From assembly GCA_018062285.1 (NCBI GenBank), contig JAGOSO010000003.1:70992-106956 (forward strand): a DNA stretch of 35,965 nucleotides, in the 5' to 3' direction. This DNA comes from Minisyncoccota bacterium (lineage in GTDB: Bacteria; Patescibacteriota; Minisyncoccia; 2-02-FULL-40-12; GWA2-44-9). Made by a program: the position numbers and the translations under genes. The notes below the pieces were generated by a model. That model made no database searches and had not been told where the DNA came from. It saw nothing but the letters and a program-made list of their open reading frames with translations. Of the stretch, positions 28,839-34,407 are shown in pieces (position 1 is the first letter of the stretch; each line of letters begins with the position of its first letter).

Positions 28839-28844
28839 GTGGGT

Positions 28845-31514
28845 ATGGTTGAGAGACTAAAATATCTCTTACTTTACTCCTCTGCGATTGTTTTTGGTTT
28901 GTCTTTTTTTACGCAAAATACTGGAGCTTATGTTCCTGGGTATGGCTGTACTTATGATCAAGGGTGTTTGATTGGTCCTGTTTTTGATACAGACATTAAT
29001 GCCAGCCCCTCTACGGCTGATAGTTCTGTCCAATTTAATGTCTTCGGTATTACGGGCCAGTTCTTGGATTTTTGTCCCAATGAGATTGGCAACGGGGGGA
29101 AGGGGTATGTTACTGCTTTTAGGCATCTCGAAAATAATCAAGCAATCATCACTGATAGTGATATTCCTAGCTTGATAGGTCAAACAATTGGCGTTTCGTA
29201 CAGTGGTGGAGCATATGGTTCATGTCCAACAGCGCCAGACCCAAGTTATTTAGGCTCGTATAGTAAGGGTGCCCCCGTTAATTTTAATGGAAATGGGGTT
29301 TTTGATTCTTCAGGCTTTCCTAATGGCGATCATTATGTTGCTGTAAGGATTACTGATGACACATTTTCTGATCAAACAAATGAGCAGGTCATTCCTTTTG
29401 CTGTCAATCATCCTTCTACTCCTTCAGGCACAGTTTGTATAAGCTCAAATACTTCAACCCACATAGACACCTCTGGTCCAAGTGGTTACTCAGACGATGT
29501 TACTGGTGACGCCGGCTATACGTGCCATGGTGGGTCTGATGTCGGGGACTATACGGCAACAGGCAGTTCTATTGGTGGGTATAATGGCCCATCTTATTAT
29601 CCATCCCAAACTCAAACGCTAAGCGATGGCGGAACAATTTATTTCGATTTAACTTATTCTCAAATTCCCAATGATCCGCTTACTGTATCTTTGAGTGTTG
29701 ATAGTGTTTGTGGTGACGATGCCTACTATACACCAAGCTGGACTTCTAATGGGGATAGCTTCGAAATTTATTACCGTAGGTGGAGTGGTGGGGCATGGAA
29801 TTATGTAGACACTGTTTCGGGAAGTCCTTATGGCGCAATCAGGTTATCAAAGGGGACAACCTATTATTTTTATGTTCTAGCCAAAAAGAGTGGATCAAGC
29901 GATATGGCAAGTAATGTTGTTGATGGTGTGACTTGTGCTGTGCCGACTGTGAGTATTTCAGCAAATCCAGCGACTGTTGCTTATGGAGCAGCTTCAACCC
30001 TGACTTGGTCTCCATCTGATGCTGGTATTTGTACTGCTTCTGGCGATTGGAGTGGCGGGAAGAATGCTGGTGGTGATAGTGAATCAACTGGTGCATTAAC
30101 CAGTGCCAAGACGTACACAATCACCTGTACCGACGCTTGGGATGGGTATGGTGCATCTGATTCGGTAACAGTAAATGTCGGTGCCCCTATTTATGGTTGT
30201 ACTGATCCAGCCGCATCGAATTATAACGCTTCAGCCAATATTGATAACGGATCTTGTACGTATGTTTGTCCGCCACCATCAAGCGAAGAGACTGGTTGCG
30301 ATTCTCCGGCAAATGCTTGCGGGCAGACAGCAAGTGGTACAAAAACAAGATCAAGGACATGTAATACCAGTAATGGGACGTATGGCGATTGGAGTGGATA
30401 CAGTTCATGTTCTGCGTCAACCCCAGCTAATACCTGTACACCAACTGCAACCATTACCGCTGATTCAAACACTGTTGGCTATAACGGTTCAACTACAATT
30501 CGATGGAACTGCGATAATAGTAGCGCAGGGACTGTGCCAGGAATTGGTTCGGGTGTTAGTGGTTATGGCGGGACTGGTGGCTTAACTTCAAATACAACAT
30601 ATACATTAACCTGCAATGGTTATAATGGTTCAAATACAACTGCCAGCACAACGGTGTCTGTCTCTGGTCCAACATGTTCTATTAATGCCAATGGTGTAAG
30701 TGGCCCGATTACTGTGCCTTGGAATAGTAACGTCACCATAAATTGGTCTTCTACTAATGCTGGGTCCGGCACAGTTACTCCACCAGGTTGGTCTGGTACT
30801 TCTGGCTCGCAAACGACAGGAAACATTACGACTCCAGGAACCTATGTTTACACAGCCACCTTTAGTGGCAACGGGACAGCGTCATGTAATGAATTTGTAA
30901 CAGTTAGTCCACCGGTACCAATTTTGCTTGGTGCTCCTACATATTCTCCTCCTGATTATTGCTCCGTTGGCCCTGGTGGAACTATCTCTTGGGGATACTC
31001 TGATCCATCGGGTAGCCCACAGACTGCTTATGAGGTAAAAATTGGGGGATGGAGTTCTGGAAAAATTAATTCTTCTTCTCACGTATATTCATTCCCTAAT
31101 GGCACCTTGTCTTTTGGTCAAACTTACAACAATACAGAAGTGAGAGTTTGGAATTCATACGATCAGGTGTCAGATTGGTCGTCTTATGTGGCAAGTTATT
31201 CAACTCCGCCTTATGCCTATCCTGAAGTTGAGCCACCATATCAATTCACTTGGGCCACGACACCACGACCTCAACAGAATAAGCCTATTCAGTTTTATGC
31301 CAATAGTCTGTTTAGTTCCGGAGGGCAATGGTTGTGGAATTTTGGAGATGGGGGAACTTCTTCTGCCGAAAATCCATCTCACACATACGCTGCAATTGGT
31401 GCTTATAATGTAACTCTTACTGCAACTGATGCTGCCAATCAAAGTTGCCCTTACACCCAGTCCGTTAATATCCAGAAGCCAATTCCGGTTATTAAAGAAG
31501 TTGCACCAAAATAA
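28845..31514 (+). CDS. Large secreted surface protein with Ig-like, Cys-rich and PKD modules
   Basis: An 889-residue exported protein. A signal peptide (about 1-29) is followed by beta-rich modules, two similar Ig-like segments (for example SISANPATVAYGAASTLTW and TITADSNTVGYNGSTTIRW), a YGCTDPAASNYNASANIDNG motif known from many bacterial surface proteins, a Cys-rich TSP1-like stretch (ASGTKTRSRTC...WSGYSSC), and a PKD domain near the end (WLWNFGDGGTSSAENPSHTY). No C-terminal helix, LPXTG or other anchor is visible, so it may be released or held by other proteins. A role in attachment is typical for such proteins, but here it is inferred. The start at 28845 is chosen over GTG 28839 because of the promoter spacing. 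Confidence 0.8.
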   Translation: MVERLKYLLLYSSAIVFGLSFFTQNTGAYVPGYGCTYDQGCLIGPVFDTDINASPSTADSSVQFNVFGITGQFLDFCPNEIGNGGKGYVTAFRHLENNQAIITDSDIPSLIGQTIGVSYSGGAYGSCPTAPDPSYLGSYSKGAPVNFNGNGVFDSSGFPNGDHYVAVRITDDTFSDQTNEQVIPFAVNHPSTPSGTVCISSNTSTHIDTSGPSGYSDDVTGDAGYTCHGGSDVGDYTATGSSIGGYNGPSYYPSQTQTLSDGGTIYFDLTYSQIPNDPLTVSLSVDSVCGDDAYYTPSWTSNGDSFEIYYRRWSGGAWNYVDTVSGSPYGAIRLSKGTTYYFYVLAKKSGSSDMASNVVDGVTCAVPTVSISANPATVAYGAASTLTWSPSDAGICTASGDWSGGKNAGGDSESTGALTSAKTYTITCTDAWDGYGASDSVTVNVGAPIYGCTDPAASNYNASANIDNGSCTYVCPPPSSEETGCDSPANACGQTASGTKTRSRTCNTSNGTYGDWSGYSSCSASTPANTCTPTATITADSNTVGYNGSTTIRWNCDNSSAGTVPGIGSGVSGYGGTGGLTSNTTYTLTCNGYNGSNTTASTTVSVSGPTCSINANGVSGPITVPWNSNVTINWSSTNAGSGTVTPPGWSGTSGSQTTGNITTPGTYVYTATFSGNGTASCNEFVTVSPPVPILLGAPTYSPPDYCSVGPGGTISWGYSDPSGSPQTAYEVKIGGWSSGKINSSSHVYSFPNGTLSFGQTYNNTEVRVWNSYDQVSDWSSYVASYSTPPYAYPEVEPPYQFTWATTPRPQQNKPIQFYANSLFSSGGQWLWNFGDGGTSSAENPSHTYAAIGAYNVTLTATDAANQSCPYTQSVNIQKPIPVIKEVAPK

Positions 31515-31527
31515 AATAAGGATTAGT

Positions 31528-31561
31528 CTAAAAACCCGCTTGAGTTTGTGCGGGTTTTTAG
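31528..31561 (+). terminator. Terminator after the large surface protein gene
   Basis: CTAAAAACCCGC (31528-31539) pairs with GCGGGTTTTTAG (31550-31561); the loop is 10 bases. Strong GC core and T-run. Confidence 0.88.
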
Positions 31562-31577
31562 TTACCATTTACTGGCT

Positions 31578-32084
31578 ATGAGCGAAAATCACCCATTACC
31601 AAAACATGTTGTAAGGATAAAAAAGTTAAGGTCTTTGTTGGCTATTGTCGAGAATGCGGTTAAAGACGGGGACAATTATCTCTTCAGGAATTTATATGCC
31701 GACGAAGATGGGCAAGAGATAGACATTTTGGAGAATGGCAGAAATTCTTGTGGTGTTTTTGTATCGTGGATTTTATTGACTCTCGGTCTTATTAAGAGCC
31801 CTCACGCCACAGTGCATGCCACTGAAAAAGATATGCTAGATAGTGGTTGGTTTGAAGTAAAAGAATTAGAGCCTGGTGCAGTTATAGTTTGGGAAAAGAG
31901 GGAGGGGGCGATGTTTGATGGGGAAAGAATCCCAAAAGAGCACATAGGTTTTTATGTTGGAAACAATGCGGCGATTAGTAATGATTCAAAAAAAACCGGT
32001 TTCCCTTGGTCTCATCATGTTACTTATGACGGCACCAGAAATGTTGAGAAAATTTATTGGCATAATGATTTAGATAACGGTTAA
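31578..32084 (+). CDS. NlpC/P60 or CHAP-like cysteine peptidase (putative)
   Basis: A 168-residue cytosolic-looking protein (no signal peptide). NSCGVFVSWIL places Cys58 in the position of the NlpC/P60 or CHAP catalytic Cys. KEHIGFYVGNN places His122 in the G-x-H-x-G-Y/F-Y-V-G context of the catalytic His, and the late SHHV segment adds further His residues. These motifs suggest an amidase or peptidase acting on peptide bonds of wall or other substrates, but the family call is moderate. An upstream in-frame start at 31548 lies in the terminator and is unlikely. The next gene begins immediately after its stop and is also a putative cysteine peptidase. Confidence 0.6.
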   Translation: MSENHPLPKHVVRIKKLRSLLAIVENAVKDGDNYLFRNLYADEDGQEIDILENGRNSCGVFVSWILLTLGLIKSPHATVHATEKDMLDSGWFEVKELEPGAVIVWEKREGAMFDGERIPKEHIGFYVGNNAAISNDSKKTGFPWSHHVTYDGTRNVEKIYWHNDLDNG

Positions 32085-32159
32085 ATGAACGATATAAAAA
32101 TTGATGTTCCAATCTCTGACCAGCACGATAAAACCCACGAAGAGTCGTGGGCTTATTGA
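32085..32159 (+). other. 24-codon upstream part of a split C39-like peptidase
   Basis: The ATG directly follows the previous stop. The frame reads MNDIKIDVPISDQHDKTHEE, then SWAY and TGA (32157-32159), and continues in the same frame into the C39-like gene at 32160. The IDVP...Q segment matches the normal N-terminus of C39-like peptidases, including the oxyanion-hole Gln. It could therefore be the broken first part of one gene, or the start of a protein made by stop-codon readthrough. Confidence 0.55.
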
Positions 32160-32639
32160 ATGTGTGCGCCTTGCTCTCTGTGGATGTTGATTAAGCACCA
32201 TGATTTAAGTTTAGTGTTATCCCCACTAGAACTACGGGACAAACTCCTTGCCAAGAATGGATATTTGGAAAATATTGGCTTCAAACACCGTGCTCTGGCT
32301 GAAATGGGTCAAGAATATGGTTTGCCATTAACTTTTGCAAAGAAGTTTTTTTATACACCAGAAGAAAAAGAGGTTGGTATGAAAATAATAAACAATAATG
32401 TTTTGGCAGGTCATCCCGTAATTGTTTCTGTTTATTACCAATTAAATCCTGCCAAGGGTGGGCACATGGTTGTGGTTCATGGCGTTCAAGAATTCAGTGG
32501 TCAAACCATTGGTTATTATATCCAAGACCCCGATTCTTCGTTCCAGGGTCATAACTATTTCCTTCCGCGTGAGCAATTCCTTGCAGGTTGGCGAGGGGGA
32601 TTAATCTATCAAGAGATAGCAGGCAATCCCGCTCCCTAG
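32160..32639 (+). CDS. C39-like cysteine peptidase, N-terminally interrupted
   Basis: This 159-residue frame is the core of a peptidase C39-like (papain-fold) protein. CAPCSLWML aligns with the usual CGPxSLxM, so the catalytic Cys is Cys2; His102 (GGHMVVVHG) and Asp123 (IQDPDSS) complete the triad. As read from the ATG, the protein would lack the first strand and the oxyanion Gln, which are encoded just upstream in frame beyond a TGA. It is either a disrupted gene, expressed by readthrough, or begins at this ATG by TGAATG coupling. No signal peptide is present. It lies next to another putative cysteine peptidase. Confidence 0.65.
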   Translation: MCAPCSLWMLIKHHDLSLVLSPLELRDKLLAKNGYLENIGFKHRALAEMGQEYGLPLTFAKKFFYTPEEKEVGMKIINNNVLAGHPVIVSVYYQLNPAKGGHMVVVHGVQEFSGQTIGYYIQDPDSSFQGHNYFLPREQFLAGWRGGLIYQEIAGNPAP

Positions 32640-32700: not shown

Positions 32701-32777
32701 GGGGATGTAGCTCAATTGGTTAGAGCGCTTCCCTGTCACGGAAGAGGTTGCGGGTTCGAGTCCCGTCATTCCCGCCA
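32701..32777 (+). tRNA. tRNA-Asp (anticodon GTC)
   Basis: The acceptor GGGGATG pairs with CATTCCC, with one G-U pair. The anticodon loop CTGTCAC has GTC at 32735-32737 and the T-arm GCGGGTTCGAGTCCCGT is intact. The discriminator is G and the 3' CCA is encoded (32775-32777), unlike the other two tRNAs here. Confidence 0.95.
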
Positions 32778-33219: not shown

Positions 33220-34374
33220 ATGAACATATCCATAGCAGGAGACGACAAGTTGGTAGAAGTTCTTTCCAAAAGAACTGACGCAGAAGCTCGAAGGATGGAA
33301 AGGTTTTTGGCTATGCCTGATTTGTCTCGCCAAGAAGGCAGCCCTATTTTTGAGATCGTGCATCGTATTTTAAGCCAGCCTAATTTTAAAGATTTCGATG
33401 TTATCACCACACCGGAAATCGTTCGAGCAGATATGAGTTTTGATTTGTTCGATTTCCCAGCCGATCACCCCGCTCGTTCCAAGTCAGACACTTATTATGT
33501 AGATGATAATAATATTTTGCGTACCCACACGACAGTAATGTGGAATTATTATCTCGCCCAAGAAGACGTAAAAAAAAGAATGGCCGAGAATAAGCCGGTA
33601 GGGTCATTCTCTTACGGCAAGGTTTATCGTAAGGACGAAATCGATCGTAACCATATGAACGTTTTCCATCAGATGGACGGCTGGTATCTCGCCCCAAAAG
33701 ATCAGCAACAAATCGGTGCCCCAGAATTAGAAAAAGTTTTAACTGATATTGCTAAGGCGGTTTTCGGTCCTGATGTTAAATACAGGTTCAACCCAGACAC
33801 ATTCCCTTACACTGATCCATCCCTAGAGATGGAGATTGAAGTGACTCGTTCAATTGGGGGAGTGGTAGAAACAAAATGGGTTGAGGTCTTGGGCTCTGGC
33901 GTTGTAAAAGGAAAGGTTCTGGAAAATCACGGCGTAGATTCCACCAAGTGGAATGGCTGGGCTTTCGGCTTCGGATTAGAACGCTTGGCGATTATCTCTA
34001 TGGAGCTTCCAGATATTCGTTTGCTTTGGTCTCAGGACGAAAGAGTGAAGAAGCAATTGGTTCTAGGTACTCACTACAAAGAAGTCTCAAAGTATCCGCC
34101 GATTGTTCGCGATATTTCTTTTGTGGTTCATAAAGATTTCGTTCCTAATAATTATTTTGATTTGATTCGTGATATTGGCGGGGACTTGGTTGAAGAAGTT
34201 CAATTGATTGATAAATATGAAAATGCTTCAAAATTCGGACCAGATAAAATTAGCTATACTTACAGAATTACTTATCGCTCAACAGAAAGGACTCTTCAAA
34301 CAGAAGAGATAGATCCTATCCAGCAAGAGGTCTACGATCGCACCAAGAAGGAGTTTGATGCAGAAGTTCGCTAG
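33220..34374 (+). CDS. pheS: Phenylalanine--tRNA ligase, single-chain form with FDX-ACB domain
   Basis: A class II synthetase for tRNA-Phe. The catalytic core is PheS-like: TTPEIV and HPARSKSDTYYV, motif 2 YGKVYRKDEIDRNHMNVFHQ, MEIEVTRSI and motif 3 GFGLERLAIISMELPDIRLL. From about residue 290 it continues in frame into an FDX-ACB anticodon-binding domain (KYPPIVRDISFVVHKDFV ... YTYRITYRSTERTLQTEEID), which in bacteria normally ends the separate PheT subunit. This PheS core plus FDX-ACB layout is that of the monomeric mitochondrial enzyme. The bacterial PheS N-terminal coiled coil is missing. No pheT follows: a terminator and gyrB come next. At 384 residues it is somewhat shorter than human FARS2. 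Confidence 0.95.
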   Translation: MNISIAGDDKLVEVLSKRTDAEARRMERFLAMPDLSRQEGSPIFEIVHRILSQPNFKDFDVITTPEIVRADMSFDLFDFPADHPARSKSDTYYVDDNNILRTHTTVMWNYYLAQEDVKKRMAENKPVGSFSYGKVYRKDEIDRNHMNVFHQMDGWYLAPKDQQQIGAPELEKVLTDIAKAVFGPDVKYRFNPDTFPYTDPSLEMEIEVTRSIGGVVETKWVEVLGSGVVKGKVLENHGVDSTKWNGWAFGFGLERLAIISMELPDIRLLWSQDERVKKQLVLGTHYKEVSKYPPIVRDISFVVHKDFVPNNYFDLIRDIGGDLVEEVQLIDKYENASKFGPDKISYTYRITYRSTERTLQTEEIDPIQQEVYDRTKKEFDAEVR

Positions 34375-34376
34375 CT

Positions 34377-34407
34377 CCAAAAACCGGCATATTGAGCCGG
34401 TTTTTGG
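34377..34407 (+). terminator. Terminator after pheS
   Basis: CCAAAAACCGGC (34377-34388) pairs with GCCGGTTTTTGG (34396-34407); the loop is 7 bases. It begins 2 bases after the pheS stop. Confidence 0.88.

What the first reader, a model, noticed from the sequence alone, without database searches (positions are those of the whole stretch)
33220..34374. Mitochondrial-type single-chain PheRS in a bacterium
Seen: a PheS-like catalytic core with motifs 2 and 3 runs in frame into an FDX-ACB domain, which ends at the stop codon; no N-terminal coiled coil and no pheT follow. Known: bacterial PheRS is normally (PheS)2(PheT)2, with FDX-ACB at the PheT C-terminus, whereas mitochondrial FARS2 is a monomer with just this domain pair. 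Inference: this organism may use a monomeric PheRS without the beta-subunit editing domain, which would imply lower Tyr/Phe discrimination. Relation to the mitochondrial enzyme could be shared ancestry or convergent reduction.
Basis: partly seen in the sequence, partly recalled or inferred. Interest (0 to 1): 0.72.

Follow-up and report, generated by a model that had tools for sequence, protein, structure and literature searches.

The report
Mitochondrial-style single-chain PheRS in Patescibacteria
This ultra-small bacterium seems to attach phenylalanine to its tRNA with one short enzyme built like the mitochondrial one, instead of the usual four-part bacterial enzyme with a proofreading site, and related bacteria appear to have swapped one version for the other repeatedly, in one pair at exactly the same spot in the chromosome.

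Summary
Window 33220-34374 encodes a 384-residue protein: a PheS-type catalytic core joined to an FDX-ACB domain that ends at the stop. The 712-kb genome (rated 100% complete) has no other PheS-like gene, no PheT and no B3/B4 editing domain, but has tRNA-Phe(GAA). This is a family, not an oddity: 40 of 133 genomes sampled from the class carry it, and 39 of these 40 lack PheT. In one genus the gene sits exactly where a sister species has pheS-pheT, with colinear flanks up to gyrB. Gene-tree conflicts within genera point to horizontal transfer. The structure model matches human FARS2 over both domains (Z 37). The FDX-ACB domain resembles that of FARS2 (43% identity) more than that of PheT, but the core tree does not settle the origin. 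All 106 distinct sequences replace a pocket Gln, conserved in PheS and FARS2, by Trp, and the pocket Glu by Asp or Gly. "Lower Tyr discrimination" is therefore not a safe inference. Monomeric state and activity are untested.

The parts
33220..34374 (+). Single-chain phenylalanyl-tRNA synthetase gene (384 aa)
   Evidence: family alignment A1; HMM of A1 687 bits in own genome
33388..34056 (+). Class II catalytic core (PF01409), residues 57-279
   Evidence: E=5.7e-55
34087..34371 (+). FDX-ACB anticodon-binding domain (PF03147), residues 290-384
   Evidence: E=4.6e-23, model 1-94 of 94
33520..33543 (+). Pocket strip R101-W108 (RTHTTVMW): W108 stands where PheS and FARS2 have Gln; T104 is Asp in a subgroup
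   Evidence: W 106 of 106 single-chain, Q 35 of 35 PheS and FARS2
33664..33681 (+). Motif 2 strip F149-G154 (FHQMDG): D153 stands where PheS and FARS2 have Glu; Gly in the subgroup with Asp104
   Evidence: D 80, G 26 of 106; E in 34 of 35 PheS and FARS2
33802..33822 (+). F195-S201 (FPYTDPS): aromatic wall of the Phe pocket; Tyr197 where PheS has Phe
   Evidence: F195 in 105 of 106; Y197 in 97 of 106
33958..33969 (+). W247-G250 (WAFG) of motif 3 with Ala248, the Ala conserved in all PheS rows
   Evidence: A248 in 104 of 106 (the other two rows have X or a gap)
34377..34407 (+). Terminator-like hairpin (12 pairs, T-rich tail) directly after the stop codon
34475..35965 (+). gyrB (cut by the window end): conserved neighbour of both the single-chain gene and pheST

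Best explanation
The gene encodes the cell's only phenylalanyl-tRNA synthetase: one chain whose PheS-type core activates Phe and whose FDX-ACB domain reaches the GAA anticodon, as in mitochondrial FARS2. It has displaced the PheS-PheT heterotetramer, and with it the B3/B4 editing site. In Patescibacteria the pheST operon often lies directly upstream of gyrB, and the one-gene form is found in that same place; the most likely route is horizontal transfer followed by recombination through the flanks, repeated in many lineages. Shown by computation: architecture, absence of PheT/B3-B4, mutual exclusion, same-site exchange in one genus, conflicting gene tree, conserved but rebuilt pocket. Inferred: that it charges tRNA-Phe alone, that it works as a monomer, that recombination through gyrB caused the exchanges, and that the W108 and D/G153 changes compensate for lost editing by excluding Phe analogues such as m-Tyr.
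For: Only PF01409 gene in the genome; no B5 or B3_4; TIGR00472 only at the FDX-ACB and a separate small ORF. tRNA-Phe GAA present with G1-C72 and A73. Class sample: single-chain in 40 of 133 genomes, weakest 489 bits against 162 for the best ordinary PheS; 39 of the 40 without B3_4. Phylum sample: 26 of 286, none of them among the 249 with B5. Same-site exchange: G386 and G287, genus g249, flanks 84-86% nucleotide identity. gyrB in the held stretch for 79 of 106 distinct single-chain proteins, and beside 18 of 30 class PheT loci. Transfer: 6 of 10 multi-row families are not one clade. Structure: pLDDT 91.7; Z 37.1 to FARS2 over 352 residues. Pocket counts.
Against: No experiment. One genome (G318) has both forms, though its pheST lies on a 4.4-kb contig that may be a binning error. 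The genomes compared are metagenome bins or drafts. P0001 falls below the curated cut-offs of pheS_mito (229.8 of 258.35) and of every other PheRS equivalog. The loss of the Glu and Gln of the canonical pocket could also mean a changed substrate. 27 of 106 distinct proteins show no gyrB in the held stretch, 17 of them with at least 1 kb held on both sides. The same-site exchange was examined in one genus only, and its direction is not known.
Confidence: 0.82

Rival explanations
1. The protein is not a PheRS but a SrmL-like ligase of unknown substrate (NCBIfam NF051887), and the true PheRS was missed.
For: NF051887 is the top NCBIfam model by bits for P0001 (247.2); the D in FHQxD is shared with SrmL, and both lack the pocket Gln.
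Against: Below the NF051887 cut-off of 300, whereas the SrmL-type proteins tested reach 423-524. SrmL has His where P0001 keeps Phe195. The one match over the cut-off in the phylum sample (G143) is in a genome that also has an ordinary PheS and a B5 domain, as an extra gene should be. P0001 is the only PF01409 gene in its genome, and the family replaces pheST.
Confidence: 0.05
2. Convergent reduction: a patescibacterial PheS fused to the C-terminal domain of its own PheT, independent of mitochondria.
For: FARS2 placement is unresolved in the joined tree (AU p 0.52 and 0.43 for two alternatives); pheST and the single-chain gene share a locus; other patescibacteria show step-wise reduced PheRS.
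Against: The single-chain core is one clade outside all 35 PheS rows, not nested among patescibacterial PheS (98% SH-aLRT). Its FDX-ACB is nearer FARS2 (42.9%) than PheT (29.6%), and FARS2 FDX-ACB is nearer the family (42.9%) than PheT (26.0%); grouping 99/98.
Confidence: 0.3
3. The beta subunit exists but was lost from the assembly or is too divergent to detect.
For: Draft genome of 14 contigs.
Against: Genome rated 100% complete; B3_4 absent in 39 of 40 single-chain genomes of the class sample, while present in 88 of the 93 others; the gene already carries a PheT-type anticodon-binding domain.
Confidence: 0.03
4. The enzyme is backed by a free-standing deacylase that edits in trans, so fidelity is as in other bacteria.
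For: Free-standing editing proteins are known for other synthetases (recalled).
Against: No B3_4 protein of any length in the genome or in 39 of the 40 single-chain genomes. Other deacylase families were not searched.
Confidence: 0.1

Closest known systems
Mitochondrial PheRS (FARS2, PheRS-M)
   Same: Single chain, class II core plus C-terminal FDX-ACB, no PheT, no editing domain; model aligns over 352 residues at 36% identity, Z 37.1; nearest FDX-ACB.
   Different: Encoded in bacteria as the only PheRS; pocket Gln and Glu of FARS2 are Trp and Asp/Gly; P0001 and two of three relatives tested fall below the TIGR00469 cut-off, one (L196) exceeds it at 260.8 bits.
Bacterial PheRS (PheS2-PheT2)
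   Same: Same catalytic core and the same FDX-ACB domain type; shares the gyrB-adjacent locus in Patescibacteria.
   Different: No coiled coil, no beta subunit, no B3/B4 editing site, one gene of 1.2 kb instead of about 3.1 kb.
SrmL, PheS-related ligase of unknown function (NF051887)
   Same: Single chain core plus FDX-ACB-like tail; Asp after HQ in motif 2; no pocket Gln.
   Different: SrmL rows have His where P0001 has Phe195 and occur on plasmids, in a huge phage and in a genome with a normal PheS; P0001 is below the SrmL cut-off.

Membership tests
Mitochondrial-type PheRS (PheRS-M / FARS2) | PheS-type core and FDX-ACB in one chain, ending with FDX-ACB | tested here: met
Mitochondrial-type PheRS (PheRS-M / FARS2) | No partner PheT and no B3/B4 editing domain | tested here: met
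Mitochondrial-type PheRS (PheRS-M / FARS2) | Score over the TIGR00469 pheS_mito cut-off (258.35 bits) | tested here: not met
   P0001 229.8; L205 244.5 and L202 244.8 also below, L196 260.8 above
Mitochondrial-type PheRS (PheRS-M / FARS2) | Same two-domain fold and domain arrangement | tested here: met
   Z 37.1, rmsd 2.8, 352 residues to 3cmq; prediction only
Mitochondrial-type PheRS (PheRS-M / FARS2) | Common descent with FARS2 | tested here: inconclusive
   FDX-ACB 99/98 for, core and joined data unresolved; one eukaryotic sequence only
Mitochondrial-type PheRS (PheRS-M / FARS2) | Active monomer | not testable with these tools
   needs purified protein
Bacterial PheRS alpha subunit (PheS) | N-terminal coiled coil and a PheT partner | tested here: not met
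Bacterial PheRS alpha subunit (PheS) | Score over the TIGR00468 cut-off (237.45 bits) | tested here: not met
   166 bits
SrmL (NF051887) | Score over the cut-off of 300 bits | tested here: not met
   247.2 bits

The most novel reading that the evidence does not exclude
Single-chain PheRS arose once, outside the PheS-PheT line. The patescibacterial family and the mitochondrial enzyme of eukaryotes are two branches of it, so the unsettled source of FARS2 is this bacterial line or a shared donor.
Probability: 0.25. Interest if true: 0.85.

Novelty: new variant of a known kind. Interest (0 to 1): 0.72.

Why it matters
PheRS is described as having three forms, with the single chain confined to mitochondria (passages of PMC3275996; passages of PMC10810186 and PMC11580382 list PheRS-M as the mitochondrial-like family). 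A bacterial single-chain form as the sole enzyme would break that rule, give the mitochondrial enzyme bacterial relatives against which its origin can be tested, and show natural, repeated loss of an editing domain that protects E. coli from m-Tyr (PMC4066437, abstract and section 8). Because sister species carry either form at one locus, the cost and benefit of editing can be compared in similar backgrounds. I found no paper reporting it in nine full-text searches of an open-licence library; most subscription papers and all bioRxiv preprints are missing from that library.

Tried and rejected
PheT missed by the search: rejected; the weak second TIGR00472 match in the own genome is a separate 110-aa OB-fold-like ORF. 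Viral or plasmid origin: tblastn of plasmids and phages found no place covering 80% of the query, and the IMG/VR scan with A1 found no relative. SrmL membership: rejected on score, residue and context. FARS2 nested inside the family: suggested by FDX-ACB alone, not by the joined data, where the family is one clade at 100/99. The Fisher value for positions 104 and 153 is not used as evidence of many events: on the 54-row tree the change happened once. Promoter-like sites near the gene were no more than in shuffles. The B5 search alone could overstate PheT loss, so B3_4 and TIGR00472 were added. VIA-align rows of PylRS and SepRS (Z about 20) are read as the common class II fold.

Full report
What is there. 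The ORF at 33220-34374 (+) encodes 384 residues. Pfam finds the PheS-type class II core at residues 57-279 (E=5.7e-55) and FDX-ACB at residues 290-384 (E=4.6e-23), the latter over the whole model and up to the last residue. A hairpin with a T-rich tail follows the stop (34377-34407), then gyrB. Two short helices stand where PheS has its coiled coil. The genome (711,705 bases, 14 contigs, rated 100% complete) has one PF01409 match, no B5, no B3_4, and a TIGR00472 match only at this FDX-ACB and at a 110-aa stand-alone ORF. tRNA-Phe(GAA) is present, with G1-C72 and A73, elements that yeast and human mitochondrial PheRS use (PMC4394434, passages).

It is a family with a clean distribution. In 133 genomes of the class, 40 hold a homologue scoring at least 489 bits against the family model; the next best match in any genome is 162 bits and is ordinary PheS. 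Two of the 40 are split over contig ends (G086, G350) and two more stop at one (G295, G331). Of the 40, 39 have no B3_4 domain; 89 of 133 genomes have it, G318 being the only one with both forms. Of the 93 genomes without the single-chain gene, five lack B3_4 (G325, G356, G357, G177, G367). In 286 genomes of the phylum, 26 have single-chain-like matches (NF051887 208-260 bits, open frame 321-410 aa), and none of the 26 is among the 249 genomes with B5. Seven of the 26 are also in the class sample; of the 19 others, 14 were fetched and score 597-688 bits against the family model, and five rest on NF051887 alone. Together that is 59 genomes, one of which also has PheT.

Replacement at one locus. 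Twelve families of the class sample hold both forms (f3, f9, f132, f133, f142, f148, f150, f151, f159, f163, f166, f173; for f3 the PheT form is the truncated one of G177), and one genus, g249, has two genomes of each. In g249, G386 (L205) carries the single-chain gene exactly where G287 (L206) carries pheS-pheT. The neighbours are the same on both sides: a 149-aa ORF (87% identity) and two further ORFs upstream, then gyrB (95%), a 180-aa ORF (98%) and a 483-aa ORF (89%) downstream (I take these two for nusG and gatB from their sequence, by recall). Nucleotide identity of the flanks is 84-86%. The upstream block runs about 30 bases past the likely start codon, so that both proteins begin MAVEN, and the downstream block starts within the first bases of gyrB. 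pheT is also followed by gyrB in G401, and in 18 of the 30 class PheT loci that were held with 1.5 kb flanks; in 0 of 6 loci outside the phylum, which were held with about 1 kb downstream. Among 106 distinct single-chain proteins, gyrB lies downstream on the same strand in 63 and upstream on the other strand in 16; 27 show none in the held stretch, 10 of these with under 1 kb on one side. The tree of 54 single-chain proteins breaks 6 of 10 multi-row families, with well-supported branches, and splits genera g6, g286 and g295. I read this as horizontal transfer, in at least one case by allelic exchange through the flanks. The direction of the g249 exchange is not known, and binning errors could add false cases.

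Fold and pocket. The AlphaFold model (pLDDT 91.7, pTM 0.88) aligns with human FARS2 over 352 residues (Z 37.1, rmsd 2.8, 36% identity), against Z 20-25 over 220-232 residues for bacterial PheS. Key pocket positions were counted across 106 distinct family members, 35 PheS, FARS2 and 4 SrmL-like rows. Ala248 and Phe195 of the Phe site are kept. Gln, present in 35 of 35 PheS and in FARS2, is Trp108 in 106 of 106. Glu, in 34 of 35 PheS and in FARS2, is Asp153 in 80 and Gly in 26. The 26 Gly forms all have Asp at position 104, where 79 of the 80 Asp153 forms have Thr; one member (L046) has both acids. On the 54-row tree this is a single event. In FARS2, Gln124 and Glu159 hold the meta-OH of m-Tyr (PMC3275996, passages); that these are the two positions above is my reading of the alignment. 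E. coli PheRS discriminates Phe from m-Tyr only 35-fold at activation and relies on editing; yeast mitochondrial PheRS lacks editing and makes m-Tyr-tRNA (PMC4066437, section 8). Hence the idea that the family, lacking editing, refuses m-Tyr in the synthetic site. This is inference; the same changes could have other causes, and no coordinates were available to me to measure the pocket.

Origin. The core places the family (98% SH-aLRT) and PheS (99%) as separate groups, with FARS2 on a long branch beside PheS (84%). The FDX-ACB tree joins FARS2 and the family at 99/98, and mean identities agree: FARS2 to family 42.9%, FARS2 to PheT 26.0%, family to PheT 29.6%; but holding FARS2 with PheT costs only 0.45 log units, which I put down to the long SrmL branch. 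In the core, FARS2 is 38.6% identical to the family and 37.0% to PheS. The joined data leave three placements open (80/21 for FARS2 with PheS-PheT; AU p 0.52 and 0.43 for the two others). One eukaryotic sequence is too few. I hold shared ancestry likelier than convergent fusion, at roughly 60 to 30.

Comparison with what is known. By architecture and fold it works like mitochondrial PheRS. By curated scores it belongs to no named family: P0001 is under the cut-offs of pheS_mito, SrmL and pheS, while one relative, from G318, passes pheS_mito. Published classifications seen in passages name a mitochondrial-like form and two tetrameric forms (PMC3275996, PMC10810186, PMC11580382); a CPR study of TyrRS and TrpRS notes missing B2 domains in CPR PheT but not this enzyme in the passages I saw (PMC5370408); a protein-family study of CPR clusters PheS with PheT without comment on single chains in the passages I saw (PMC6744442).

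Noticed in passing
L204 2336-4251 (G177) and L210 2553-4622 (G367): A different reduction of PheRS: a 246-255 aa PheS without N-terminal extension beside a 392-426 aa PheT that keeps B5, the catalytic-like domain and FDX-ACB but has no B3/B4 editing domain.
   Followed up: partly
G318: C2 1290-4392 and C57 1577-2686 (L197, L196): Only genome of 133 with both pheST and the single-chain gene; pheST lies on a 4.4-kb contig, so coexistence and binning error cannot be told apart.
   Followed up: partly
L157 3986-5065 (uncultured phage LR745206, 634,780 bases): A huge phage encodes a 359-aa SrmL-type protein, over the NF051887 cut-off (423.4 bits); function unknown.
   Followed up: partly
L155 3830-4948 and L156 3818-4930: Plasmids of Glutamicibacter and Azotobacter carry SrmL-type proteins annotated as hypothetical, 40-43% identical to the one in patescibacterial genome G143.
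   Followed up: partly
L075-L104 and further places: Most PheT of this class match the bacterial model only from about position 158, so they seem to lack the N-terminal part with the OB-fold domain.
   Followed up: no
L003 1486-1818 (G000 contig C12): Stand-alone 110-aa ORF resembling the OB-fold tRNA-binding domain of PheT.
   Followed up: no
window 28839-31514: 891-aa predicted protein with PKD and Ig-like matches.
   Followed up: no
window 31548-32639: Two small ORFs: 31548-32084 with a weak TIGR02594 match, and 32160-32639 with a Peptidase_C39_2 match, next to tRNA-Asp at 32701-32777.
   Followed up: no
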